A stretch of DNA of 64,000 nucleotides, taken from NCBI RefSeq assembly GCF_006716785.1, contig NZ_VFPQ01000002.1, positions 186,001 through 250,000 of the forward strand. The letters are read 5' to 3'. Source of the DNA: Thermopolyspora flexuosa. GTDB taxonomy: Bacteria; Actinomycetota; Actinomycetes; Streptosporangiales; Streptosporangiaceae. Both the position numbers and the translations under genes were made by a program. Positions 3,725 through 17,657 of this stretch are shown piece after piece (the stretch's first letter is position 1; each line of letters opens with the position of its first letter). The notes under the pieces were generated by a model, which saw only the letters and a program-made list of their open reading frames with translations, did not search any database and was not told the origin of the DNA.

Positions 3725-5614
3725 TCAGCCGTTGCGCGCCTGCTGCTTGATGCGGTTGGTGAGTTCGGTCACCTGGATGTAGACCGAGCGTCGTTCCGCC
3801 ATGAGCCGGCGGATCTTGCGGTCGGCGTGGATCACCGTGGTGTGGTCGCGCCCGCCGAACTGCTGGCCGATCTTGGGGAGGGACAGGTCGGTGAGCTCCC
3901 GGCACAGGTACATGGCGATCTGCCGGGCGATCACCAGCACCCGGGAGCGCGAGCTGCCGCACAGGTCCTCGACCGACAGGCCGAAGTAGTCGGCGGTCTG
4001 CGCCATGATCGTCGCGATCGTGATCTCGCCGCCGGAGTCCTCGGTGATGAGGTCCTTCAGCACGATCTCGGCGAGCTGCAGGTCCACCGCCTGCCGGTTG
4101 AGGCTGGCGAACGCGGTCACCCGGATCAGCGCGCCCTCGAGCTCGCGGATGTTCGTGGAGATCCGGCTGGCGATGTACTCCAGCACCTCGTCCGGCGCGG
4201 CGAGGCCCTCCTGCCTGGCCTTCTTGCGCAGGATCGCGATCCGGGTCTCCAGCTCGGGCGGCTGCACGTCGGTGATGAGGCCCCACTCGAACCGGTTGCG
4301 CAGCCGGTCCTCCAGCGTCACCAGCTGCTTGGGCGCCCGGTCGCTGGAGATGACGATCTGCTTGTTGGCGTTGTGCAGCGTGTTGAAGGTGTGGAAGAAC
4401 TCCTCCTGCGTCTGCTCCTTGCCCTCGAGGAACTGGATGTCGTCGACGAGCAGGATGTCCACGGCCCGGTAGCGGGCGCGGAACGCGTCGGCCTTGTGGT
4501 CGCGGATCGAGTTGATGAAGTCGTTGGTGAACTCCTCGGAGCTCACGTACCGCACCCGCGCCCCGTCGTAGAGGCTCTGCGCGTAGTGGCCGATCGCGTG
4601 CAGCAGGTGGGTCTTGCCCAGGCCGGAGTCCCCGTAGATGAACAGCGGGTTGTACGCCTTGGCCGGCGCCTCGGCCACGGCGACCGCGGCCGCGTGCGCG
4701 AACCGGTTGCTCGACCCGATGACGAAGGTCTCGAAGGTGTACTTCGGGTTGAGCCGGGCGGTCTCGCTCGTCCGCCCGCCCCGGCTCTCCCACCGGTTCG
4801 GCAGCGGGCTCGGCACCGGTGGACCGAACTTGTCGCCGTGCGGGGTCTGGGGACCGTCGGCCGTCCCGGCGTCGGCGCCGCCCGCCGTACCCTCGCCCGG
4901 CCCGGCGGGGCCGTCCCCGGCGTTCCCGGACTGACCGGTGGCGCCGGTGCCCGGGTTTCCACCGCCGTCCCCAGAGTTATCCACAGAACCGTCCACAGGG
5001 ACGTCGGCCCGGCCGCCGAGCGGCCCGCCCATCGCCCCCGGGTACGGCGCGGCGCCCGGCCCGCCGGACGGCGCTCCCGGATAGCCGGGCGTCCCCGGCC
5101 CATAGGAATAGGGATACCGCGCGACCTGTGGATGGAGCTGTGGATAGTCGGTGGATGACACGCCCTCGGCCGGCCGGTGCGGGCTCGCCGATCCCGTCCC
5201 GAACTGGGATCCCATGGGGTGGCCCGGTTGTCCACCCTGTGGATAATGCGGCGGCGCGGCCTGGGGAGAGTGGGGGTACGCGGCCGACGGGCCGGGCAGG
5301 CCCGGCTTGCCGGCCCCCTGGGCGCGGGACCGCTGCGGCTCCTCGCCGTCACCGGCGGCGGCCTGGTCGACCATGACCGCGACCCGCATCGGCCGGCCGA
5401 ACTCCTGGGAGAGCGCGTGGGCGATCAGCGGCCGCAGCTTGCTCTCCAGCACGTCCTTGGCGAACTCGTTCGGGGCCGCGAGCACGACGGTGTCGTTGAC
5501 CAGGCCGAAGGGACGAGTCATGGCGAGCCAGGCCCGCTGCTGCGACGGGACGCTCCCGTCGAGGAAGTTCTCCAGCGCGCGTGCCCATACCGCCCCGAGG
5601 TCGATGCTCTCCAT
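3725..5614 (-). CDS. dnaA: Chromosomal replication initiator DnaA
   Basis: DnaA is the AAA+ initiator that binds DnaA boxes and opens oriC. The 629-residue protein has domain I (residues 1-90), a very long Pro/Gly/Ser-rich domain II (about 90-285), and an AAA+ domain III starting at [11 protein letters not shown]. Walker A is GDSGLGKTH near 327 and Walker B is LLVDDIQFL near 385. C-terminal domain IV has the DHTTVIHA DnaA-signature helix near 589. The ATG at 5614 follows AAGGAGGGG; the GTG at 5620 overlaps that site. Length exceeds the 450-residue norm because of domain II, as in other filamentous actinomycetes. The domain II DNA itself contains DnaA boxes. Confidence 0.98.
4977..5246. promoter_or_regulatory. 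DnaA boxes inside the dnaA coding region (domain II)
   Basis: Within the linker-coding part of dnaA there are perfect TTATCCACA boxes at 4977-4985 (plus) and 5238-5246 (minus). Near matches are at 5127-5135 (TGTGGATGG), 5139-5147 (TGTGGATAG) and 5228-5236 (TTGTCCACC). They encode linker residues such as VDNSGD and YPQGG. Since domain II tolerates almost any sequence, these boxes could be maintained at the DNA level. Functional binding is inferred, not shown. Confidence 0.6.
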
Positions 5615-6219
5615 GATCACCCCTCCTTCCCTACGCGGCCCCCGGTCGCCCGCCGCGATCAGTTGTCCACAGGTCGCCCCTGAGTGGGCGCCGCCTTCGC
5701 TCCGGCGTCCGCATCACCCGCGCTCGCGCTTCCCGCAGGAACCCCTCCGTGATCCACATGGAATCCACACCGAATCCACATGGTGTGCACAGTCGGCGCG
5801 CGTCATATCCAGTACATCCACGCACGGGAGGGAAGGTTCTGGAGGGCCGACAGTAGCGTTGTGCACATCCCTGTTCAAGACGTTGTCCACAGCCTACTGG
5901 CAGCACGGGGGGCCGCGGGGCCGACTCTGTGGATGACGGTGGGATCGGTGGAAAACCGGCCTGTGGAATAGTGGATAATCACTGCACATCCCGGCCTCGG
6001 GCCGGGTGCCGCGTGCGGAGGGGGTGCGGAGCGAGGCGTCACTCCGGGGTGTGAACCACCACCGAGGGCCGGTTTGACCACGGTACGGGGCAACCCGTAA
6101 CGTACGAAGGTCGGCTCGTCAGGTGACGCTTCTGCATGCCCACTGACGGCCAACGGCAATCTGTAGCGACGTCAGCGTTCGCAGGGCCTGCGGACGCGTC
6201 TCAAGCATGGAGCCCACCC
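5615..6219. promoter_or_regulatory. dnaA-rpmH intergenic region with a second DnaA-box cluster
   Basis: This 605-bp divergent gap must contain the dnaA and rpmH promoters. It carries near-consensus DnaA boxes at 5663-5671 and 5883-5891 (both TTGTCCACA), 5750-5758 (TGATCCACA), 5928-5936, 5962-5970 and 5970-5978. No convincing coding sequence is seen. The arrangement suggests DnaA autoregulation and possibly a bipartite origin flanking dnaA. Both are inferences from box positions. Confidence 0.7.
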
Positions 6220-6526: not shown

Positions 6527-6913
6527 GTGCTGCCGTCCGCCTCCCGAATGCGGCGAAGCGAGGACTTCGCGGCCGCGATCCGACGGGGACGCCGGGCCGG
6601 GCGTCCCACTCTCGTCGTCCATCTGAACATCCGCACCGACGGCGACCAGCAGGCACCGCCGCTGGTCGGTTTTGTCGTGAGCAAGGCCGTGGGCGGCGCC
6701 GCCGTCAGGAACCGGGTGAAACGGCGCCTCAGACACCTGGTGCGGGACCGTCTCCACCGCCTCCCGCAAGGTAGCCTGCTTGTGGTACGCGCCAATCCAC
6801 CGGCCGCGTCCGCGCGAAGTGAGCAACTCGCCGCCGAACTCGACATCGCGCTCAATCGTGTACTCGGGCGGCGTGGGCCCGACCCACAGGCCCGAACGGA
6901 TGGACAGGCATGA
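6527..6913 (+). CDS. rnpA: Ribonuclease P protein component
   Basis: RnpA is the protein cofactor of RNase P, which matures tRNA 5' ends. The 128-residue protein has the N-terminal SRMRRSEDF motif and the hallmark RNRVKRRLR basic helix (from [18 protein letters not shown]). The start is the GTG at 6527, 6 nt after a perfect AGGAGG at 6515-6520, so upstream in-frame codons are excluded. Its stop overlaps the yidD start in an ATGA, indicating translational coupling. The C-terminal tail is slightly longer than in E. coli. Confidence 0.96.
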
Positions 6914-7191
6914 CGGCGCAACAGACCACCGGGATCAGCCCGGTCGCCCGGATCCTGACGGCGTTGATCAGGTTCTACCGGGCCTTCATCAGTCCGTTGC
7001 TCGGTCCCCGCTGCCGGTTCGCACCGTCGTGCAGTGCCTACGGGCTTGAGGCCATCACCGTGCACGGCGCGCTGCGCGGGCTCTGGTTGACGATCCGTCG
7101 GATTGGACGTTGCCACCCCTTCCACCCCGGAGGGTACGACCCGGTGCCACCCCGCCCGGTGCGGACCCACGACGAGACGCAAGGGAGCTAG
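6910..7191 (+). CDS. yidD: Membrane protein insertion efficiency factor YidD
   Basis: YidD is a small peripheral membrane protein that aids YidC-dependent insertion. The 93-residue protein has the family core [19 protein letters not shown], then [12 protein letters not shown] and [18 protein letters not shown], including the conserved cysteines. The start codon overlaps the rnpA stop (ATGA). It lies directly before yidC, its functional partner. Confidence 0.96.
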
Positions 7192-7195
7192 CTCA

Positions 7196-8146
7196 GTGGA
7201 GCTGTCCTGGCTGAATTGGCTCTATGAGGCTGTCGCCTTTGTGATCACATGGATCCACCGGGGCTACAGCACCTTCCTTCCCCCGGATGGCGGCCTGAAC
7301 TGGGCGCTGACCATCATCACGCTCACGGTGCTCATGCGCCTGTGCATCTTCCCGCTCTTCCTCAAGCAGATGCGCTCGTCGCGGAAGATGCAGGAGCTGG
7401 CCCCCAAGATCCAGGAGCTCCGCAGGCGGTACAAGAACGACCGCCAGAAGCTGAACGAAGAGGTGATGAAGGTCTACCAGACGGCGGGCGTCAACCCGCT
7501 GGGGGGCTGCCTGCCGATCCTGGCGCAGTTCCCGATCTTCATCTCCATGTTCACCGTGCTCCGGGCGATGGCCGAGGGGCAGGCCAAGTTCGGCATGACG
7601 AAGGAGCTGGTGGACAGCGCCCGTGCGGCCCACATCTTCGGCGCGCCCATCCCGGCGACCTTCTTCACCAGTGACGCGGACATCGCGGCTTTCGACGCCG
7701 ACCCGGTGATCACCCGAATCGTGCTCGGCATCTTCGTCGCGACGAGCTCCCTGACGACCTTCCTCACGGTCCGGCAGAGCGTGAAGCGGTCGATGGCCCA
7801 GATGCCGGACAACCCGATGGCGCAGTCGCAGAAGATGCTCATGTACATCTCGCCGCTGTTCGCCGTCTTCAGCCTGGGTTTCCCGCTCGGTCTGATCCTC
7901 TACTGGGTAACCACAAACCTGTGGACCCTCGGCCAGCAGCACTGGTTCTACAGCCGGTACCCGATGCCGCAGTTCGACGCGAAGGGCAACCCGGTGCCGG
8001 TGCAGCCCAAGCGCGGGGTGCTGGCGAGGATCCGTAAGAAGGCGCCCGAGCCGCCGCCGGAGCCGGCGAAGCCCAAGACTAAGATCATCCGTCAGCAGCC
8101 CAGCCGGCAGCCGCGGAGCAAGAGGACCGGTAGCAAGAAGTCATGA
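7196..8146 (+). CDS. yidC: Membrane protein insertase YidC (Oxa1 family)
   Basis: YidC inserts and folds inner-membrane proteins with or without SecYEG. The 316-residue protein has the Gram-positive layout: an N-terminal membrane segment, then a helix at ITLTVLMRLCIFPLFLKQM with the hydrophilic-groove arginine, the cytoplasmic charged hairpin (KIQELRRRYKNDRQ), NPLGGCLPILAQFPIF, and two further helices around FLTV and LFAVFSLGFPLGLIL. A basic Lys/Arg/Pro tail ends the protein, as in other actinobacteria, and may contact the ribosome. The GTG start at 7196 follows GGGAG by 8 nt. The stop overlaps an ATGA at the upstream end of the jag frame. Confidence 0.96.
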   Translation: MELSWLNWLYEAVAFVITWIHRGYSTFLPPDGGLNWALTIITLTVLMRLCIFPLFLKQMRSSRKMQELAPKIQELRRRYKNDRQKLNEEVMKVYQTAGVNPLGGCLPILAQFPIFISMFTVLRAMAEGQAKFGMTKELVDSARAAHIFGAPIPATFFTSDADIAAFDADPVITRIVLGIFVATSSLTTFLTVRQSVKRSMAQMPDNPMAQSQKMLMYISPLFAVFSLGFPLGLILYWVTTNLWTLGQQHWFYSRYPMPQFDAKGNPVPVQPKRGVLARIRKKAPEPPPEPAKPKTKIIRQQPSRQPRSKRTGSKKS

Positions 8147-9272: not shown

Positions 9273-9995
9273 ATGGCGGAAACCAACGAACTTCCCGACG
9301 CGCCTGCGGTGGCACGCGAGATCTTCTCCGGCGACGCGTGGGCCAAGGCGCAGGCGTACGCGGAGCTGCTGGCCGGGCCCGGGGTGGTGCGCGGCCTGCT
9401 GGGGCCGCGCGAGGTGCCGCGGATCTGGGACCGGCACCTGCTCAACTGCGCCGTGGTGGCCGAGGCGGTTCCGGAGGGGGTACGGCTCGTCGACATCGGT
9501 TCCGGCGCCGGCCTGCCCGGGATCGTGCTCGCCATCATCCGGCCGGACATCACGGTGACCCTGCTCGAGCCGCTGCTGCGCAGGACCGTCTTCCTCGAGG
9601 AGTGCGTGGAGGCGCTCAAGCTCGACAACGCGGAGGTGCTGCGCGGCCGGGCGGAGGAGGTGGCGGGCACGCGCCTGTTCGACGTGGCCTGCGCCCGGGC
9701 CGTCGCTCCGCTCGACCGCCTGCTGCTGTGGTCGATGCCCCTGCTCGTCGAGGGCGGCCGGCTGCTCGCGGTGAAGGGGGAGCGTGCCGCCGAGGAGCTG
9801 GAGGCGGCAGGCGACGCGTTGCGGAAGACGGGGGCGCGCCGCGCCGAGCTGGTCACGGTCGGTCGCGGTAAGGTCGATCCACCCGCCACCCTCGTCCGTG
9901 TGTTCGCCGGGCGGACCGGCCCGGCGGGCGAACGCGGGGGAGGGCGGCGCGGGCCGGGCGGCCAGGACAAGCGGCGACGGAAGAGGCGGCGATGA
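9273..9995 (+). CDS. rsmG: 16S rRNA (guanine527-N7)-methyltransferase RsmG (GidB)
   Basis: RsmG methylates G527 of 16S rRNA using S-adenosylmethionine; its loss gives low-level streptomycin resistance in other bacteria. The 240-residue protein has PREVPRIWDRHLLNCAVV, the SAM-binding VDIGSGAGLPGIVLA, and LEPLLRRTVFLEE. The C-terminus is a basic tail, GGQDKRRRKRRR. The ATG at 9273 is chosen; an adjacent GTG would add one residue, and the ribosome binding site is weak. The stop overlaps the parA ATG (ATGA), a coupling typical of rsmG-parA-parB. Confidence 0.96.
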   Translation: MAETNELPDAPAVAREIFSGDAWAKAQAYAELLAGPGVVRGLLGPREVPRIWDRHLLNCAVVAEAVPEGVRLVDIGSGAGLPGIVLAIIRPDITVTLLEPLLRRTVFLEECVEALKLDNAEVLRGRAEEVAGTRLFDVACARAVAPLDRLLLWSMPLLVEGGRLLAVKGERAAEELEAAGDALRKTGARRAELVTVGRGKVDPPATLVRVFAGRTGPAGERGGGRRGPGGQDKRRRKRRR

Positions 9996-11056
9996 CCATC
10001 GGCCAGGGGACGGGACGACCGGCGGGCGGCGGTGCCGTACCGGACGGCCGCCCTTCCGGATCCGGTCGGCCCGCGGATACTGCCGCATCCGCACAAAAGC
10101 CGGTAGAAATGACGAGAAGCGATGCGCTGATTCCCCCGACCTCCGGCGATTCGCCACCGGTACGAGAGGCAATGAGTTCCGTGGTTTCACGTGAAACATC
10201 AACTCCGACTCCTCCATCCCCGTCCCTGGTCGGCTACTCCTCGCGTAGCCAGGAGGAGTGGCCGCGGCCGGCGCGACGTCGTGTGATCACGATCGCCAAC
10301 CAGAAGGGCGGCGTCGGCAAGACGACCACGGCGGTGAACCTCGCGGCGGCGCTCTCGATGCACAACCAGCGCGTCCTCGTCATCGACCTGGACCCGCAGG
10401 GCAACGCCTCCACGGCGCTGTCGATCGAGCACCGCGGCGACGTGCCGTCGGTCTACCAGGTGCTGATCGAGGGCATGCCGCTGGCGGAGATCGTGAAGCC
10501 GGTGCCGGACATGCCGAACCTCTACTGCGCACCCGCCACGATCAACCTCGCCGGTGCCGAGATCGAGCTCGTGTCGATGGTGGCCCGGGAGTCGCGCCTG
10601 CTGAAGGCGATCAACGAGTTCAAGGAGATCGAGCTCGACTACATCTTCATCGACTGCCCGCCCTCGCTCGGCCTGCTGACGGTGAACGCCATGGTCGCGG
10701 CGGCCGAGGTGCTGATCCCCATCCAGTGCGAGTACTACGCGCTGGAAGGGCTCAGCCAGCTGCTGCAGAACGTCGAGCTCGTCCGCGCCCACCTCAACCC
10801 GAAGCTCTCCGTCTCCACCGCGCTGCTCACCATGTACGACGGCCGGACACGGCTCGCCGCACAGGTCGCCGAGGATGTCCGGGCACACTTCGGTGATACG
10901 GTCCTCAGGACGGTGATCCCGCGAAGCGTACGGGTGTCCGAGGCGCCGAGCTACGGCCAGTCGGTCATCACCTACGACCCGGGGTCGAGCGGTGCGATGG
11001 CCTACGCCGACGCGGCCCGCGAGATCGCGTTCCGCGGCGCGAGCGTGACCGGCTGA
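9992..11056 (+). CDS. parA: Chromosome-partitioning ATPase ParA (Soj)
   Basis: ParA is a deviant Walker ATPase that coats the nucleoid and, with ParB-parS, moves sister origins apart. The 354-residue protein has a long, low-complexity N-terminal extension (about 100 residues), then ITIANQKGGVGKTTTAVNL with both signature lysines, FIDCPPSLG and the ECEYYALEGL-type switch region. The ATG at 9992 overlaps the rsmG stop and has GGAAGAGG upstream. Later in-frame ATGs exist, so the extension may be shorter. A parS site at 10183-10198 lies inside the extension, encoding VSRET. A decayed inverted copy of this 5' region lies at 13.6 kb. Confidence 0.96.
   Translation: MTIGQGTGRPAGGGAVPDGRPSGSGRPADTAASAQKPVEMTRSDALIPPTSGDSPPVREAMSSVVSRETSTPTPPSPSLVGYSSRSQEEWPRPARRRVITIANQKGGVGKTTTAVNLAAALSMHNQRVLVIDLDPQGNASTALSIEHRGDVPSVYQVLIEGMPLAEIVKPVPDMPNLYCAPATINLAGAEIELVSMVARESRLLKAINEFKEIELDYIFIDCPPSLGLLTVNAMVAAAEVLIPIQCEYYALEGLSQLLQNVELVRAHLNPKLSVSTALLTMYDGRTRLAAQVAEDVRAHFGDTVLRTVIPRSVRVSEAPSYGQSVITYDPGSSGAMAYADAAREIAFRGASVTG
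10183..10198. promoter_or_regulatory. parS: parS site 1, inside parA
   Basis: GGTTTCACGTGAAACA matches the consensus TGTTTCACGTGAAACA at 15 of 16 positions and keeps the palindromic core. It encodes the VSRET residues of the ParA N-terminal extension. ParB binds and spreads from such sites. Confidence 0.92.
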
Positions 11057-11135: not shown

Positions 11136-12107
11136 GTGAGTAACCGGCCGCGGCGTGGACTGGGGAAAGGGCTGGGGGCCCTCATCCCCACCGGTCCCAT
11201 CGTGCAGCCCATGGCGCAGCATGGGCCCGCCCAGGCGGGGGGCACCACCTCCGAGGCGGCGCCGGTCGCCGGGGCGTACTTCCAGGAGATCGACGTCGAG
11301 CTGATCGACCCGAACCCGCGGCAGCCGCGCGACAACTTCGATCCGGACGCGCTCGCCGAACTGGCGACCTCCATCCAGGAGGTCGGCCTGCTCCAGCCCG
11401 TGGTGGTACGGCCGAAGGACGGCGGCCGGTTCGAGCTCATCATGGGGGAACGCCGCCTCCGGGCCTGCAAGCTGGCGGGCCTGAAGCAGATCCCCGCGAT
11501 CGTGCGCAACACCCAGGACGACGAGATGCTCCGGGAGGCGCTGATCGAGAACCTGCAGCGGGAGCAGCTCAACCCGCTGGAGGAGGCTGCCGCCTACCGG
11601 CAGCTCCTCGACGACTTCGGGGTGACGCACGAGCAGCTCGCCCGCAAGGTCGGCCGCTCCCGCCCGCACATCACCAACATGCTGCGCCTGCTGACCCTGC
11701 CGCCGTCCATCCACAACCGCCTCGCCTCGGGTGTGCTGAGCGCGGGCCACGCCCGCGCCCTGCTCGCCCTCGACGACCCCGCGGCCCAGGAGCACCTCGC
11801 CAAGCGCATCGTGGCCGAAGGCCTCTCGGTACGCGCGGTCGAGGAGATCGTGCAGCTCGGCGAGGCCACCGCGGGCCCCACGCCGCGCCGCCGGCCCACC
11901 AAGCAACCACCACCGCCCGAGCTGAAGGAGCTCTCCGACCGCCTCTCCGACCTCTTCGAGACCCGGGTGAAGGTCGACCTCGGCAAGCGCAAGGGCCGCA
12001 TCGTCGTGGAGTTCGCCTCGGTGGAGGACCTCGAACGCATCCTCTCCTCGATGGCCCCCGACGCCCTCAACACCATGCGCACCTCCTCCGGCTCCACCTC
12101 CGGCTAG
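11136..12107 (+). CDS. parB: Chromosome-partitioning protein ParB
   Basis: ParB is a CTP-dependent clamp that loads at parS and spreads. The 323-residue protein starts [18 protein letters not shown]. It has the IDPNPRQPR box, the CTP-binding [12 protein letters not shown] segment, the [14 protein letters not shown] box II, and a helix-turn-helix around [19 protein letters not shown]. The C-terminal dimerisation region is [16 protein letters not shown]. The GTG start at 11136 follows GGGGAGG. It is the last intact gene of the rsmG-parA-parB unit; degraded mobile DNA follows. Confidence 0.97.
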
Positions 12108-12761
12108 GGGCGACTCGTCGCCACCCACGGCCTGCACCACCGAAACCCCGCCATCACCCTCCGGCCACCGGGGCCATCCCGGACACGCGCGCGGCAGCGC
12201 GCCTTCGGGGTACCGGGGCAAGGCCGGTGCGACCATCGGCACCCACGTCACCCGGAGAATCCCACGCGGCGATCGTCGGCACCGAGCCCTGTTTCAGTGC
12301 GACCAGGGCAGCGCACCCGAGGCACCGGGTAGCCACGTCACCGCCGCAGCCCTCGAGAGGGGGACTCGGGTGCGCCGCCCAGCGCACGGGTCACCATCCC
12401 TCTTCTTGAGGAGGGGCATCCCGCTTTCGGAAGAGGGGTACGAAGCTCGGCCCGCTGGCCGCGAGCACGTACCGCATGGCGGCAGGCGCGGATACGCGTA
12501 CGGCCGGCACCCGGACCCTGTCCGCCTGGACGCCCCTGGGCTTCTCTTGCTGACGCCGTTCGCCATGCGCTCGCACGGCACAGGGAGGCTCGGTGGCTCC
12601 TGGCGGCTACGTCCTTGAGATCTGGTCAGGCACTGCAATACAGCCTGGCGCAACGATGGCCGCCCTCCGCGACGATCACGGCCGAGGGCGTTCGACGGCA
12701 TCATGGCGTCTCACGTGTCGCCCGATCACCTGGGCGAGTATTTCCGAACCCGGTCGAAGTT
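12108..12761. other. Non-coding region after parB
   Basis: No open reading frame here has convincing codon bias or a recognisable product, although several frames are open by chance. No strong terminator is visible after parB. The base composition is somewhat less GC-rich than neighbouring genes, consistent with decayed DNA. It leads into the C-terminal end of the IS982-type transposase remnant. Confidence 0.5.
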
Positions 12762-13201
12762 CTAGGCGATCAGCGGACGGGAAAAAGGCGCGCCCGTGGC
12801 CCGGTTGTTCCAGATCGCCGCGCTCAGAGCCAGAATGCGCTCGGCGACGCCCACCGCGACGCGCAGCGGCGTCCTGCCGCCGTGCAGCTCCAGATCAAGC
12901 TGTCCTTCGAGGGTGTCGTTGACCGACTCGAGGAGCTGCCGGACCGGTTTGAGGTACCGCTCGCCGGGATGGAGGCGTCAAGGTCTGTTGCCGCACGCGG
13001 ATCGCCGGCATCCTTCGGCGTGTTGGCAGCCCGCCCCGAAGCGACGTAGGACCTAATCGTCTAGGGCCGGTCTGCAACGCCTGTGCGGTACGCCGGACGC
13101 GTCGGACCCGCGAGGGACGCGTCGATGGCGGCACTCCGCATACGTCCGCGCGCCCGAGGCTCTCCACGGTTGGCGACCTCCGTGCACCCCAGCGGGGGAG
13201 T

Positions 13202-13217
13202 GGTTTCACGTGAAACA
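13202..13217. promoter_or_regulatory. parS: parS site 2
   Basis: GGTTTCACGTGAAACA is identical to the site in parA. It lies within the IS982 remnant and is preceded by GGGGGAGT, the same flank as at the 15505 site. Confidence 0.9.
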
Positions 13218-13559
13218 TAGCGTCCGGAGCAGGAGCGGTAAGCGCCCGGGAGCCGGTTGGCCCTTTGTGGACGTCCGCACAGGTCGGCCACCGGGCGGTG
13301 GATGGCGCCGAACCCGGACCCTGCACCCGGTCCTCCGCCGGGCGAAGCCTGCACCCGTTCCCCGGCGACCCGGCGAACGCGGTCTCGGCCTGGTTTGACG
13401 CGGTCGGCTCCTGCGACGGCACGCAATGTCGGGACCGAGATGACGGCGGTGCGGCACCCGTACCCTTCGATGCGACGGTGGCATCGTCGGCTTTGGCAGC
13501 TGACAACGGCCCTCCCGGCTTCGCCTCCGGTGCAAGCAGGGCGGACGCGTGGCGGTGTC

Positions 13560-13690
13560 CACTCCTCCGAGCTACGCGAGGAGCGCCAATCGCGGCGGGG
13601 AGGAGTCGGAGTTGATGTTTCACGTGAAACCGCGGAACCCGTTGCCTCTCGTATCGCTGGCGAGGCGCCGGAGGTCGATGTCCTGACGGC
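13560..13690 (-). repeat. Degenerate inverted copy of the parA 5' coding region
   Basis: The minus strand here matches parA around 10130-10260. Shared blocks include GACCTCCGGCG, ATACGAGAGGCAA, the parS core with its CATCAACTCCGACTCCTCC flank, TCCTCGCGTAG and GGAGGAGTGG. In the parA frame it reads STSGASPAIREATGSAVSRE, then STPTPPRRDWRSSRSSEEW, compared with PTSGDSPPVREAMSSVVSRE and STPTPPSPSLVGYSSRSQEEW in ParA. The match stops before the P-loop. It is too short and diverged to make protein. Confidence 0.8.
13616..13631. promoter_or_regulatory. parS: parS site 3, in the inverted parA copy
   Basis: TGTTTCACGTGAAACC differs from the consensus only at the last base. It is the copy of the parA-internal site carried by the inverted duplication, 215 bp from site 4. 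Confidence 0.92.
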
Positions 13691-13830
13691 TCTTCTTCAT
13701 CCTCGTCGAGAGCGAGCCCGCGTCTTACTGCGACTGCCCGGCCGTCATGCCGCGGCGACGTTGGGTGCTGGGCATTGTGCCGGCACGGCGAGGACTCATC
13801 CGATCGCCGCTCCGGACTGGGATAAGGAGT

Positions 13831-13846
13831 TGTTTCACGTGAAACA
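13831..13846. promoter_or_regulatory. parS: parS site 4, perfect consensus
   Basis: TGTTTCACGTGAAACA is an exact 16/16 parS palindrome. It lies between the parA-like duplication and the N-terminal remnant of the IS982-type transposase. Confidence 0.96.
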
Positions 13847-14141
13847 GGGGCGAGGAGGGGAGCTTGCCCTGTTGCGGTAGTGGCAGTCCGCCGCCGCCCA
13901 TGTGGCCGCTGTGGCCTCTCGTAGAGCCGCAGCCACCGGGTTTCGGAGCGGATGCCGGGCAGGGCTTGGGCCACGGCCAGGGTGAGCGGTTCGGCGTCGG
14001 TGAGCTTGAGTGGGCGCCCGGTTCGGGGCGGGTGGCCGAGCCCAGTCGTCAATCTTGACGACGGTGCGGTCAGAAGGGCGTCGGGGTCTGTCGTCACAAA
14101 CGATCGTGGGGACCTTCGTCGTCCTGGCAGCCCCGAGCGAC

Positions 14142-15110
14142 CTAGGTGTGCTGTTCGGACAGGTTAGTGACGCGGCTGGCTGGGGTCTGACCTCCGATGC
14201 CGGTGTGGGGCCGGTGGTAGTTGTACCAGTCCAGCCAGTCGCCGAAAGCCGCCTGCCGTTCGGACTCTGAGAGATAGGGCCGGTGGTAGCCCACTCCTCC
14301 AGCAGGGTGCGGTGGAATCGCTCGACCTTGCCGTTGGTCTGGGGCCGCCGCGACCGGGTCCGGCACGGGCGGATGCCCAGCCGGGCACAGGCCGACAACC
14401 AAGTGGTTTTCGAATAGGCCCAGGCGTTGCCGGTCAGGACACGCGTGATGGTGATCCCGCGGGCGGCGAACCAGGTCGTGGCACGGGGCAGGAAGGCGGC
14501 GCAGGTGGCGGCGGTCTCGTCCGGCAGGGCTTCGGTGTAGGCCAGGCGGGAGTGGTCGTCGAGGGCGGTGTGCAAATACCGGTAGCGCTGCCGTCCCGGT
14601 GCCGGTTGGCACGGCCGATGGCCCGCCCGAACGCCTTATGCCCGCCGCCATCGGGATTCGGCCGAGCTTTTGGACGTCAATGCAGACCAGGTCCCCGGGG
14701 TGGGGGTGCTCATAGCGGCGGACGGGCTCGCCGGTGGCCCGGTCGCAGGCCGACAGTGGTGGCAGGCCGTTGCGGGTCAAGATGCGGTGAGCGGTGGAGG
14801 AGGCGATGCCGACACGGGCGGCCGGCCTGGCCGGGCCGATGCGTGTGCCCTGCGCAGGGCGATCACCTGTGCCTCGACCTGCGGTGCCGTACGCCGAGGG
14901 CTGCGATGAGGGCGGCTGGAGCGGTCGAGCATGCCGGCGGCGCCCAGTTGCCGACACGGGCGGCATATCGTGCAGCGGTGGTGTGGCTTACGCCGAAGCG
15001 TTCGGCGGCCCGTCGCAGCGGCCGGCCGTCTTCCACGACACACCGGCCAGGCGCAGGCCATATCGCCAGACGGCAGAAGCGGGTGCCATAGTCGCAGGGA
15101 CTGCCAGACC
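14142..15110 (-). pseudogene. IS481-family transposase, degraded by frameshifts
   Basis: Successive pieces in different frames make up an almost complete IS481 transposase on the minus strand. They are: the N-terminal helix-turn-helix RCVVEDGRPLRRAAERF (about 15060); AGMLDRSSRPHRSPRRT (about 14930); STAHRILTRNGLPPLS with RATGEPVRRYEHPHPGDL and IDVQKLGRIP (about 14790-14650); the rve integrase core ALDDHSRLAYTEALPDETA (about 14560) and RRPQTNGKVERFHRTLLEEW (about 14330); and finally WLDWYNYHRPHTGIGG and RVTNLSEQHT, ending at 14142. At least three frame changes are needed to join them, so it is dead. The length (about 970 nt) equals an intact family member. Confidence 0.88.
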
Positions 15111-15151
15111 TTCCGAGGCTTGCCCAGACTGGCTGCAGGCAGCACCCAGAC

Positions 15152-15167
15152 GGTTTCACGTGAAACA
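15152..15167. promoter_or_regulatory. parS: parS site 5
   Basis: GGTTTCACGTGAAACA lies between the IS481 and IS256 remnants. The flank ATGGATAGGCC following it recurs, inverted, beside site 7. Confidence 0.92.
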
Positions 15168-15182
15168 TGGATAGGCCGATGA

Positions 15183-15470
15183 GGGTGCGGTCAATGCCAA
15201 CGGGCAGCGGAGATTCTCGGCACGGAGGTCACAAGCCGCGAGGATGGGGCCGGTTGGCTTTCGTTCCTGCGCGACCTGGTCGCCCGCGGCCTGTCGGGCG
15301 TGCGGCTGGTGGTCTCCGACGTCCACGTCGGTCCTGTAGAGGCGATCGGAGCCGCGCTGCCCGGCGCCGCCCGGCAGCGCTGCCGCACCCGCTACTTGCG
15401 CCATCTCCTGACCACGGTCTCAGTCGACCCAGCCCTGGGCGGCCACGCTGGTACGCACGCTCTTTGACTG
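15183..15470 (+). pseudogene. IS256-family (Mutator-type) transposase fragment
   Basis: On the plus strand, ILGTEVTSREDGAGWLSFLR is followed by DLVARGLSGVRLVVSDVH, GPVEAIGAALPGAARQRCR and YLRHLLTTVSVD. This is the central catalytic part of IS256-type transposases, where the normal text is VVSDAHxGL...AAIxATLPGAxWQRCRTHY...NLL. An upstream VNANGQR is one frame off. A stop (TGA) follows GTHAL near 15467. Roughly 95 of some 400 residues remain, with no start codon or C-terminus. Confidence 0.85.
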
Positions 15471-15504
15471 CGGAGAGCCGCGGAGGCAAGGGCGGTGGGG
15501 GAGT

Positions 15505-15520
15505 GGTTTCACGTGAAACA
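15505..15520. promoter_or_regulatory. parS: parS site 6, beside the threonine aldolase stop codon
   Basis: GGTTTCACGTGAAACA ends 12 bp before the aldolase stop. Its left flank GGGGGAGT is shared with site 2 and its right flank ATGGGTGGGCGAT resembles that of site 5. Confidence 0.92.
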
Positions 15521-16569: not shown

Positions 16570-17657
16570 GGCGACCGATCCCTCCCGAGACGGGTGACCC
16601 ATCCATCGATCCGATCTCAGGCCAGGCTACGCCGTGGGGCCGCACGCGCCTCAACCGCATCCCTGCACAGGACGCGGTCGGCACCGGGGCACCGCTTCCG
16701 GCGCAGTGGAGATGCCATCGGCGGGGTGAGGCCGAAGGCCAGACGCAGGAGCCGGCAAGGCTTCCCGATCGCCGAACCCTGAGGGCATCGGTTCCAGCGT
16801 CCACTGACACCCGAACGCTCCCCGTCCCCAGAGGGGTGACGTCAGGGTTCTCTTCCGGCTCCCGCCGACGAAGGTGACATCGACCGGGATCGCCCCCATT
16901 GGCCTATCCATGTTTCACGTGAAACCACTGGGGGCGCTGCCGGCAGGTATAGCGTCGGGCCAAGGCCCCCGGAGGTCCAGCTATCGCGGCCGGCGGACGT
17001 CGCCTCCTCGCCTGACGAACCGCTCACGTTGGGGACACCTTCTCGCCGATCTGTTTTTGGAGTCCGCATGCACGGGCCGGACGTGCAGAGCCTCATCCGG
17101 GAGGTCGGCCCGCCACAGTGGCTGCAGGACGATCGGAGCCGAGGACGAGATGGCGGTGTCCGGGCGTCGCTGACTCGAGTGCCGGAGCGGGGCGGCACAT
17201 GACGGAGGGCGCACGTATCCGGGTAGCGAGATGCGCTGACCGTACATCGGGGTCAATGGGCGATCACCCGGTCCGGGACCACCATTGCGTAGCGCCCGTA
17301 AGCGATCGGTGACGGAGGAACTCGCTGATATGGACCGGAGACGGCGGGGACCGACTTGCGGACAGGCGGCGGGTCGTGAATTCGCTGTCTGCCCGGGCCG
17401 TATGCCACCCGGTGGGGCCGATCTGCAATGCCTCTGGACACAGGCGCCGTCCGCATCCTGTGTCGTCACTCCGCCATGGTCGCCCGCTCGCACGCGCGCT
17501 TCGCGGATGGCGCCTACTGCGCCGGGCCGTACCCGGCCTGCCCTGTCGTGGCGGCCGGCGTGGGGACGCTCGTCGTCGCGGTCGGCGTCAGACCGGCTTG
17601 CTCGGGGGAATCCGAGGGGCCGAGGTACGGCCTGGCGCGTCGGGTGGGCGGGGGAGG
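16570..17657. other. Long non-coding region with parS site 7
   Basis: This 1.1-kb stretch holds no gene I can support; open frames in it lack coherent codon bias or recognisable motifs. Codon-like periodicity is absent and the GC content is lower than in flanking genes. The only clear element is the parS site at 16911-16926. It looks like further decayed mobile DNA whose origin can no longer be read by eye. Confidence 0.55.
16911..16926. promoter_or_regulatory. parS: parS site 7
   Basis: TGTTTCACGTGAAACC matches the consensus at 15 of 16 positions. Read on the minus strand it is followed by ATGGATAGGCCAATG, nearly the same as the flank of site 5. Confidence 0.92.

What the first reader, a model, noticed from the sequence alone, without database searches (positions are those of the whole stretch)
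13560..13690. Inverted, decayed copy of the parA 5' end carrying parS
About 130 bp on the minus strand match parA 10130-10260, including the parS and its flanks. The translated frame still reads like ParA residues before and after VSRET, but stops before the P-loop. This is direct evidence that a parS was multiplied by duplication of parA coding DNA.
Basis: seen in the sequence. Interest (0 to 1): 0.7.

Follow-up and report, generated by a model that had tools for sequence, protein, structure and literature searches.

The report
Extra centromere copied from parA gene
A filamentous-type bacterium (an actinomycete) carries a worn, backwards copy of about 130 bases from the start of its chromosome-sorting gene parA, and that copy brought along one of the short "centromere" signals (parS), showing one way such signals can multiply.

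Summary
Window 13551-13677 (minus strand) is homologous to parA 10137-10269 (127 against 133 bp), far beyond the parS; with cores masked the match is still E=1.6e-16. The copy lies in an intergenic interval with a transposase relic. Its substitutions show no codon bias (7/7/3 at positions 1/2/3) and hit positions that relatives' parA conserves, yet the parS core is intact. Direction is parA to intergenic: 140 of 144 loci keep a parS inside the parA frame, while a second match occurs only in this genome among 341 family genomes (two candidates scored per genome), and the gap-free syntenic interval of the one congener lacks it. Shared states weakly favour an origin after the split from that congener. 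Duplication of parS with flanks recurs: 14 of 144 loci (30 scores against 0.08 expected), mostly direct repeats; only here is the parA-internal parS involved. How the DNA was copied, and whether ParB uses the copy, is inferred. My paper searches showed no account of this. A solid, modest finding: a new variant of an ordinary process.

The parts
13551..13677 (-). inverted, decayed copy of parA 5' coding DNA
   Evidence: alignment to 10137-10269
13617..13630 (.). intact 14-bp parS core inside the copy
   Evidence: exact match GTTTCACGTGAAAC
10137..10269 (+). source segment in parA
10184..10197 (.). parS inside the parA reading frame (VSRET)
   Evidence: a parS in this frame in 140 of 144 loci
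9992..11056 (+). parA
   Evidence: ORF; Pfam AAA_31 2.8e-59
11136..12107 (+). parB
   Evidence: ORF; Pfam HTH_ParB and ParB_N
13203..13216 (.). parS, shares left flank with 15506; probable orthologue of the congener's site at 7221 of reversed L020
13832..13845 (.). parS without significant flank sharing in the window
15152..15185 (+). parS plus flank, one arm of a second inverted parS duplication
   Evidence: I2, 94% over 34 nt with 16893-16926
16893..16926 (-). other arm of the second inverted parS duplication
15506..15519 (.). parS beside the 3' end of the beta-eliminating-lyase family gene; syntenic in the congener
14180..14573 (-). frameshifted integrase-core (rve) transposase relic, about 500 bp from the copy
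   Evidence: Pfam rve/rve_3 matches on two overlapping frames; coordinates computed from the matched residues

Best explanation
A piece of about 130 bp of the parA coding sequence, containing the parS that this group keeps inside parA, was copied in inverted orientation into the hypervariable interval downstream of parB. The piece does not behave as coding DNA there: its protein-coding constraint vanished and its flanks decayed, while the palindromic parS core stayed intact and most likely still nucleates ParB, so that the origin-proximal cluster gained one site. Shown: the homology, direction, loss of coding constraint, intact core, restriction to this genome among those searched. Inferred: that ParB binds it; that copying happened through break repair or template switching (the genome encodes Ku, and such intervals are rich in repeats); that selection keeps the core. 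The stated confidence is for the duplication from parA; for ParB use of the copy I would say about 0.65.
For: Core-masked homology E=1.57e-16. Substitutions 7/7/3 by codon position; six of the seven left-flank changes hit positions where 56 to 68 of 68 relatives carry the parA base. parA-internal parS in 140 of 144 loci. Two matches in the own genome, one (parA itself) in the congener, and two matches in no other of 341 family genomes at E<=1e-6 (two candidates scored per genome) or of 60 relatives at E<=0.001 (up to 14 scored). Gap-free syntenic interval in the congener lacks it. At the fourth base after the core, own parA and the copy have A, the congener C, and 0 of 68 relatives A; of five parA-parA differences in columns without a gap the copy sides with own parA at 3, the congener at 1, neither at 1. 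Duplication of parS with flanks recurs: 14 of 144 loci, 30 scores at or above 12.5 against 0.08 expected; in 11 non-independent duplicate alignments spanning a core the partner core is intact in 10, against 3.5 expected at flank identity. Ku present, E=1.4e-55.
Against: Core retention in this copy alone is not significant (0.85^14 is about 0.10), and the adjoining 18 nt on one side are also unchanged. The one search test is biased because an intact core helps a duplicate to be found, and several of its rows come from one locus. Most local duplications in these loci carry no parS on both sides (7 of 128 core-masked pairs do, 1.1 expected), so the parS may only have hitch-hiked. Dating is loose: 0.150 change outside the core against 0.163 at four-fold sites between the two species would by itself suggest an event as old as, or older than, the split, with loss in the congener.
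Confidence: 0.85

Rival explanations
1. Passive debris: the interval downstream of parB collects short duplications of any kind, and this one happened to include a parS; the core is intact only because the copy has not yet been hit there. (Compatible with copying from parA; it denies the function.)
For: 128 core-masked self-duplications in 42 of 144 loci, 121 of them without parS on both sides; retention in this copy alone has probability about 0.10 under neutrality (from 17/113); 18 nt beside the core are unchanged too.
Against: Both parS-bearing duplications of the window keep intact cores at 82-85% flank identity, and 10 of 11 alignments do so overall; the test is biased as stated.
Confidence: 0.35
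2. Gene conversion: an older parS already stood at 13617, and break repair seeded by the shared palindrome copied parA flanks over it.
For: Homology extends on both sides of the core (47 and 72 nt), as repair seeded at the core would give; the palindrome would explain the inverted orientation.
Against: No trace of the older site; no empty site can be aligned in the congener.
Confidence: 0.2
3. Remnant of a larger parA or parAB duplication, or a fragment carried in by a transposable element, later eroded to 130 bp.
For: An integrase-core transposase relic lies about 500 bp away, and DNA on both sides of the copy (12990-13045 and 13928-14141) matches one and the same congener stretch, so the interval has been rearranged.
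Against: No similarity beyond 10137-10269 is detectable although the remaining part is still 85% identical outside the core; no terminal repeats were seen by eye.
Confidence: 0.12
4. Foreign origin: the copy is a piece of another strain's parA.
For: None positive.
Against: Own parA scores highest among the genomes searched, the congener's parA close behind (129 against 123 bits), and the copy shares the A that 0 of 68 relatives have.
Confidence: 0.03

Closest known systems
Chromosomal ParABS centromere clusters of actinomycetes (Streptomyces: 22.8 parS on average, range 11-65, biased to the right of oriC; PMC8743542, passages seen)
   Same: Multiple parS sites clustered beside parAB near oriC
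   Different: The passages seen describe numbers and positions, not how sites arise. Here one site is traceable to parA coding DNA.
Tandem parS arrays in relatives (L028: 187-bp units; L023: 29-bp units; L177)
   Same: parS multiplied together with flanking DNA
   Different: Direct repeats outside parA, not an inverted copy of parA coding sequence
Partial gene duplications / pseudogene fragments in bacteria (general knowledge)
   Same: Short decayed copy of a gene's 5' part
   Different: It carries a protein-binding site whose function would not depend on the gene

Membership tests
parS site of a chromosomal ParABS system | GTTTCACGTGAAAC palindrome core | tested here: met
   exact; 7 sites in the window, all exact, where 0.02 are expected with up to 2 mismatches
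parS site of a chromosomal ParABS system | near parAB and oriC | tested here: met
   1.4 kb downstream of parB; nearness to oriC rests on the ORF at 3725-5620, recognised as DnaA from recall, no family search was run on it
parS site of a chromosomal ParABS system | bound by ParB | not testable with these tools
   needs ChIP-seq or in vitro binding
Decayed partial copy of parA | homology beyond the shared motif | tested here: met
Decayed partial copy of parA | loss of coding constraint | tested here: met
   substitutions 7/7/3 by codon position (small numbers); no parA/parB-like three-base G+C pattern in 12108-15500
Decayed partial copy of parA | absent at the same place in relatives (derived state) | tested here: met
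   one congener only, and the exact empty site cannot be aligned
Transposon-carried fragment | terminal repeats or target-site duplication at the ends | tested here: inconclusive
   no such arms among the 25 longest inverted repeats shown of 355; ends judged by eye only

The most novel reading that the evidence does not exclude
The parS kept inside parA acts as a protected reservoir: it can hardly be lost without touching ParA, and break repair or template switching in the origin region repeatedly seeds new parS sites from existing ones into a fast-changing landing zone downstream of parB, where selection keeps the cores and lets the flanks decay. Centromere clusters would then turn over by birth and decay of copies rather than by point-mutation convergence.
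Probability: 0.3. Interest if true: 0.6.

Novelty: new variant of a known kind. Interest (0 to 1): 0.42.

Why it matters
Exact parS sites number from 0 to 22 per genome in 81 genomes of this family, and how sites arise was not addressed in the papers I saw. A site traceable to coding DNA gives a roughly datable event and a testable model: duplication with flanks followed by decay around a retained core. It also warns that flank similarity between parS sites can reflect descent rather than an extended ParB recognition sequence.

Tried and rejected
Parallel cases in relatives: in four genomes (L141, L149, L160, L163) DNA near parAB recurs downstream of parB, but it lies in the gap between the parA stop and the parB start and is one repeat shared among the four, not parAB coding DNA. 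First survey counted neighbouring cores as flank similarity; it was redone with all cores masked. A naive count of parS-bearing duplications (54 of 169 against 0.9 expected) is mostly seeded by the core itself; the masked count (7 of 128 against 1.1) replaces it. Dating by four-fold sites was not decisive. Paper searches: eight on parS with duplication, distribution, gain/loss, position in parA, or ectopic parS and recombination and one on templated insertion; only listings with starts of abstracts were seen, and passages of PMC7022226 and PMC8743542; none of what I saw describes parS arising by duplication. The survey of parS distribution 10.1128/JB.01239-07 is not held, so it may discuss this.

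The short excerpts L001-L019 and L109-L114, and L021-L022 (own genome upstream of the window), were not surveyed. Of the roughly 150 parA places listed I fetched 60 further genomes, the best-scoring first with some skipped, so the survey leans to nearer relatives. Nine further loci chosen for high or known parS counts were surveyed separately and are not in the 144.

Full report
What is there. The window lies in an actinomycete genome of 5.77 Mb; its best named ParA matches are Sphaerisporangium (75 and 74% identity) and Streptosporangium (71%). parA (9992-11056) and parB (11136-12107) have their Pfam domains. Seven exact parS cores stand between 10184 and 16925; 0.02 are expected by chance with up to two mismatches. 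The genome holds eight. Among 81 family genomes of at least 98% completeness, own included, the median is 4 exact sites and nine have eight or more.

The copy. Window 13551-13677, read on the minus strand, aligns to parA 10137-10269: 17 substitutions in 113 columns outside the core, and gaps of 4, 1 and 1 nt, so that the ParA frame is shifted briefly and regained. With every core masked, BLAST still gives E=1.57e-16, and an anchored comparison against 100,000 random anchor draws from the same region gives the smallest p possible. The first script's masking was faulty (N matched N) and is not relied on.

It does not look coding. Changes fall 7/7/3 on codon positions 1/2/3. The interval 12108-15500 lacks the strong third-position G+C pattern of parA and parB. 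On the left flank seven positions differ from both parA genes; in the parA of 68 relatives the base of the window's parA is present in 65, 36, 56, 68, 66, 67 and 67 of 68. The 400-aa minus-strand ORF over it has no Pfam match at E<=0.001.

Direction and age. A parS with at most one mismatch sits in the open frame ahead of the P-loop in 140 of 144 loci, 127 of them as VSRET (the frame was walked back to the preceding stop, start codons were not verified). The congener G001 (about 92% DNA identity) has parA with its parS but no second copy, and its parB-to-lyase interval of 4,048 bp holds no N. G001 is only 78% complete, but this locus is on one contig. In 341 family genomes only the window's own has a second match at E<=1e-6; that search scored two candidates per genome, and since the query is this species' sequence, a comparable copy of a diverged parA in a distant relative could be missed. 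The same query over 60 relatives, with up to 14 candidates scored, also found a second match only in the own genome, and the self-comparison of 144 loci found no other parA-derived copy. Of the five sites in ungapped columns where the two parA genes differ in the segment, the copy agrees with its own parA at 3, with G001 at 1 and with neither at 1 (alignment-dependent). At the fourth base after the 14-bp core, own parA and copy have A, G001 C, and 68 relatives G 32, C 25, T 11, A 0. This favours, weakly, an event after the split. Four-fold sites differ by 181 of 1113 between the species; the copy's 0.150 is large for one branch of that length, so an older event with loss in G001 is not excluded.

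Is it part of a pattern? In 144 loci with 611 sites, 30 pair-and-orientation tests of 2394 reach a score of 12.5 or more against 0.08 expected from shuffled flanks; they lie in 14 loci. The strongest besides the window's are direct and often tandem: L028 (four units of 187 bp), L172, L023 (29-bp units), L138, L038, L136. Weak ones near the threshold (L093, L173, L145, L134, L127) rest on short or one-sided flanks. Only the window pair involves the parA-internal site. In nine further loci picked for high or known parS counts, five had a pair of at least 12.5 (L176, L177, L181, L183, L184); the L184 pair is the L173 pair again, seen in the same genome. None of the pairs in L176, L177, L181 and L183 uses the site next to the P-loop of parA; L184 does not contain parA. 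The other four (L178, L179, L180, L182) had no pair of 10 or more although they hold four to seven sites, so many parS clusters show no trace of duplication. The window has three further pairs with flank similarity: 15153/16912 inverted, 13203/15506 direct and 15506/16912 inverted (Bonferroni 0.0009, 0.0017, 0.014).

Does selection keep the cores? Eleven duplicate alignments with a core and at least 36 other columns have an intact partner core in 10; 3.5 would be expected at flank identity. The rows are not independent (three come from one tandem array) and an intact core helps detection, so this is suggestive only. Against it, local duplications are common in these loci and most have no parS on both sides: 7 of 128, in five loci, with 1.1 expected. 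For this copy alone, retention has a neutral probability of about 0.10, and the 18 nt beside the core are unchanged too.

Mechanism. The recipient interval contains a frameshifted integrase-core transposase relic, and anchors shared with G001 are few and rearranged: a landing zone of low constraint. The genome has Ku, so insertion of a copied neighbour fragment during break repair is possible; template switching, or repair seeded by the palindromic core, is as possible. Junctions cannot be read because no empty site aligns. This step is inference.

Literature. Passages of PMC8743542 give 11-65 parS per Streptomyces chromosome (mean 22.8) with a bias to the right of oriC; passages of PMC7022226 state that one site near oriC is enough for positioning and segregation of oriC and that several may add robustness. 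A listing entry (PMC3519483, title and start of abstract) concerns repeat-driven instability in mycobacteria. None seen describes parS arising from parA coding DNA; the searches are listed under Tried and rejected.

Verdict. The event is a clear instance of a parS-bearing stretch of coding DNA copied to a new place; the broader turnover model and any function remain to be tested.

Noticed in passing
window 10137-10200 and its equivalents in 70 family loci: The DNA just ahead of the parA-internal parS is conserved at codon level as well as in peptide (consensus PGDSPLVREALSSVVSRET): CGA in 67 of 68 arginines at -21, GTG in 68 of 69 valines at -3, TCG in 63 of 66 serines at -33. A DNA-level constraint beyond the parS core, or a promoter, is possible.
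   Followed up: partly
L028 5215-5789 (G013), L023 4808-4961 (G010), L177 10185-12577 (G073): parS arrays: four 187-bp units about 97-99% identical, 29-bp units, and a dense array in a genome with 16 exact sites.
   Followed up: partly
L141, L149, L160, L163: A repeat of about 100 nt occurs between parA and parB and again, inverted or direct, downstream of parB in four genomes of one genus (g72).
   Followed up: partly
window 12990-13045 and 13928-14141: Both match the same stretch of the congener (6873-6927, and 6708-6927, of reversed L020), so other DNA of this interval was duplicated or rearranged around the parS copy.
   Followed up: no
family genomes G072, G026, G073 against G002, G079, G355: Exact parS counts range from 22, 18 and 16 to none at all in genomes of 98% or more completeness; the zero genomes may use a variant site.
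   Followed up: no
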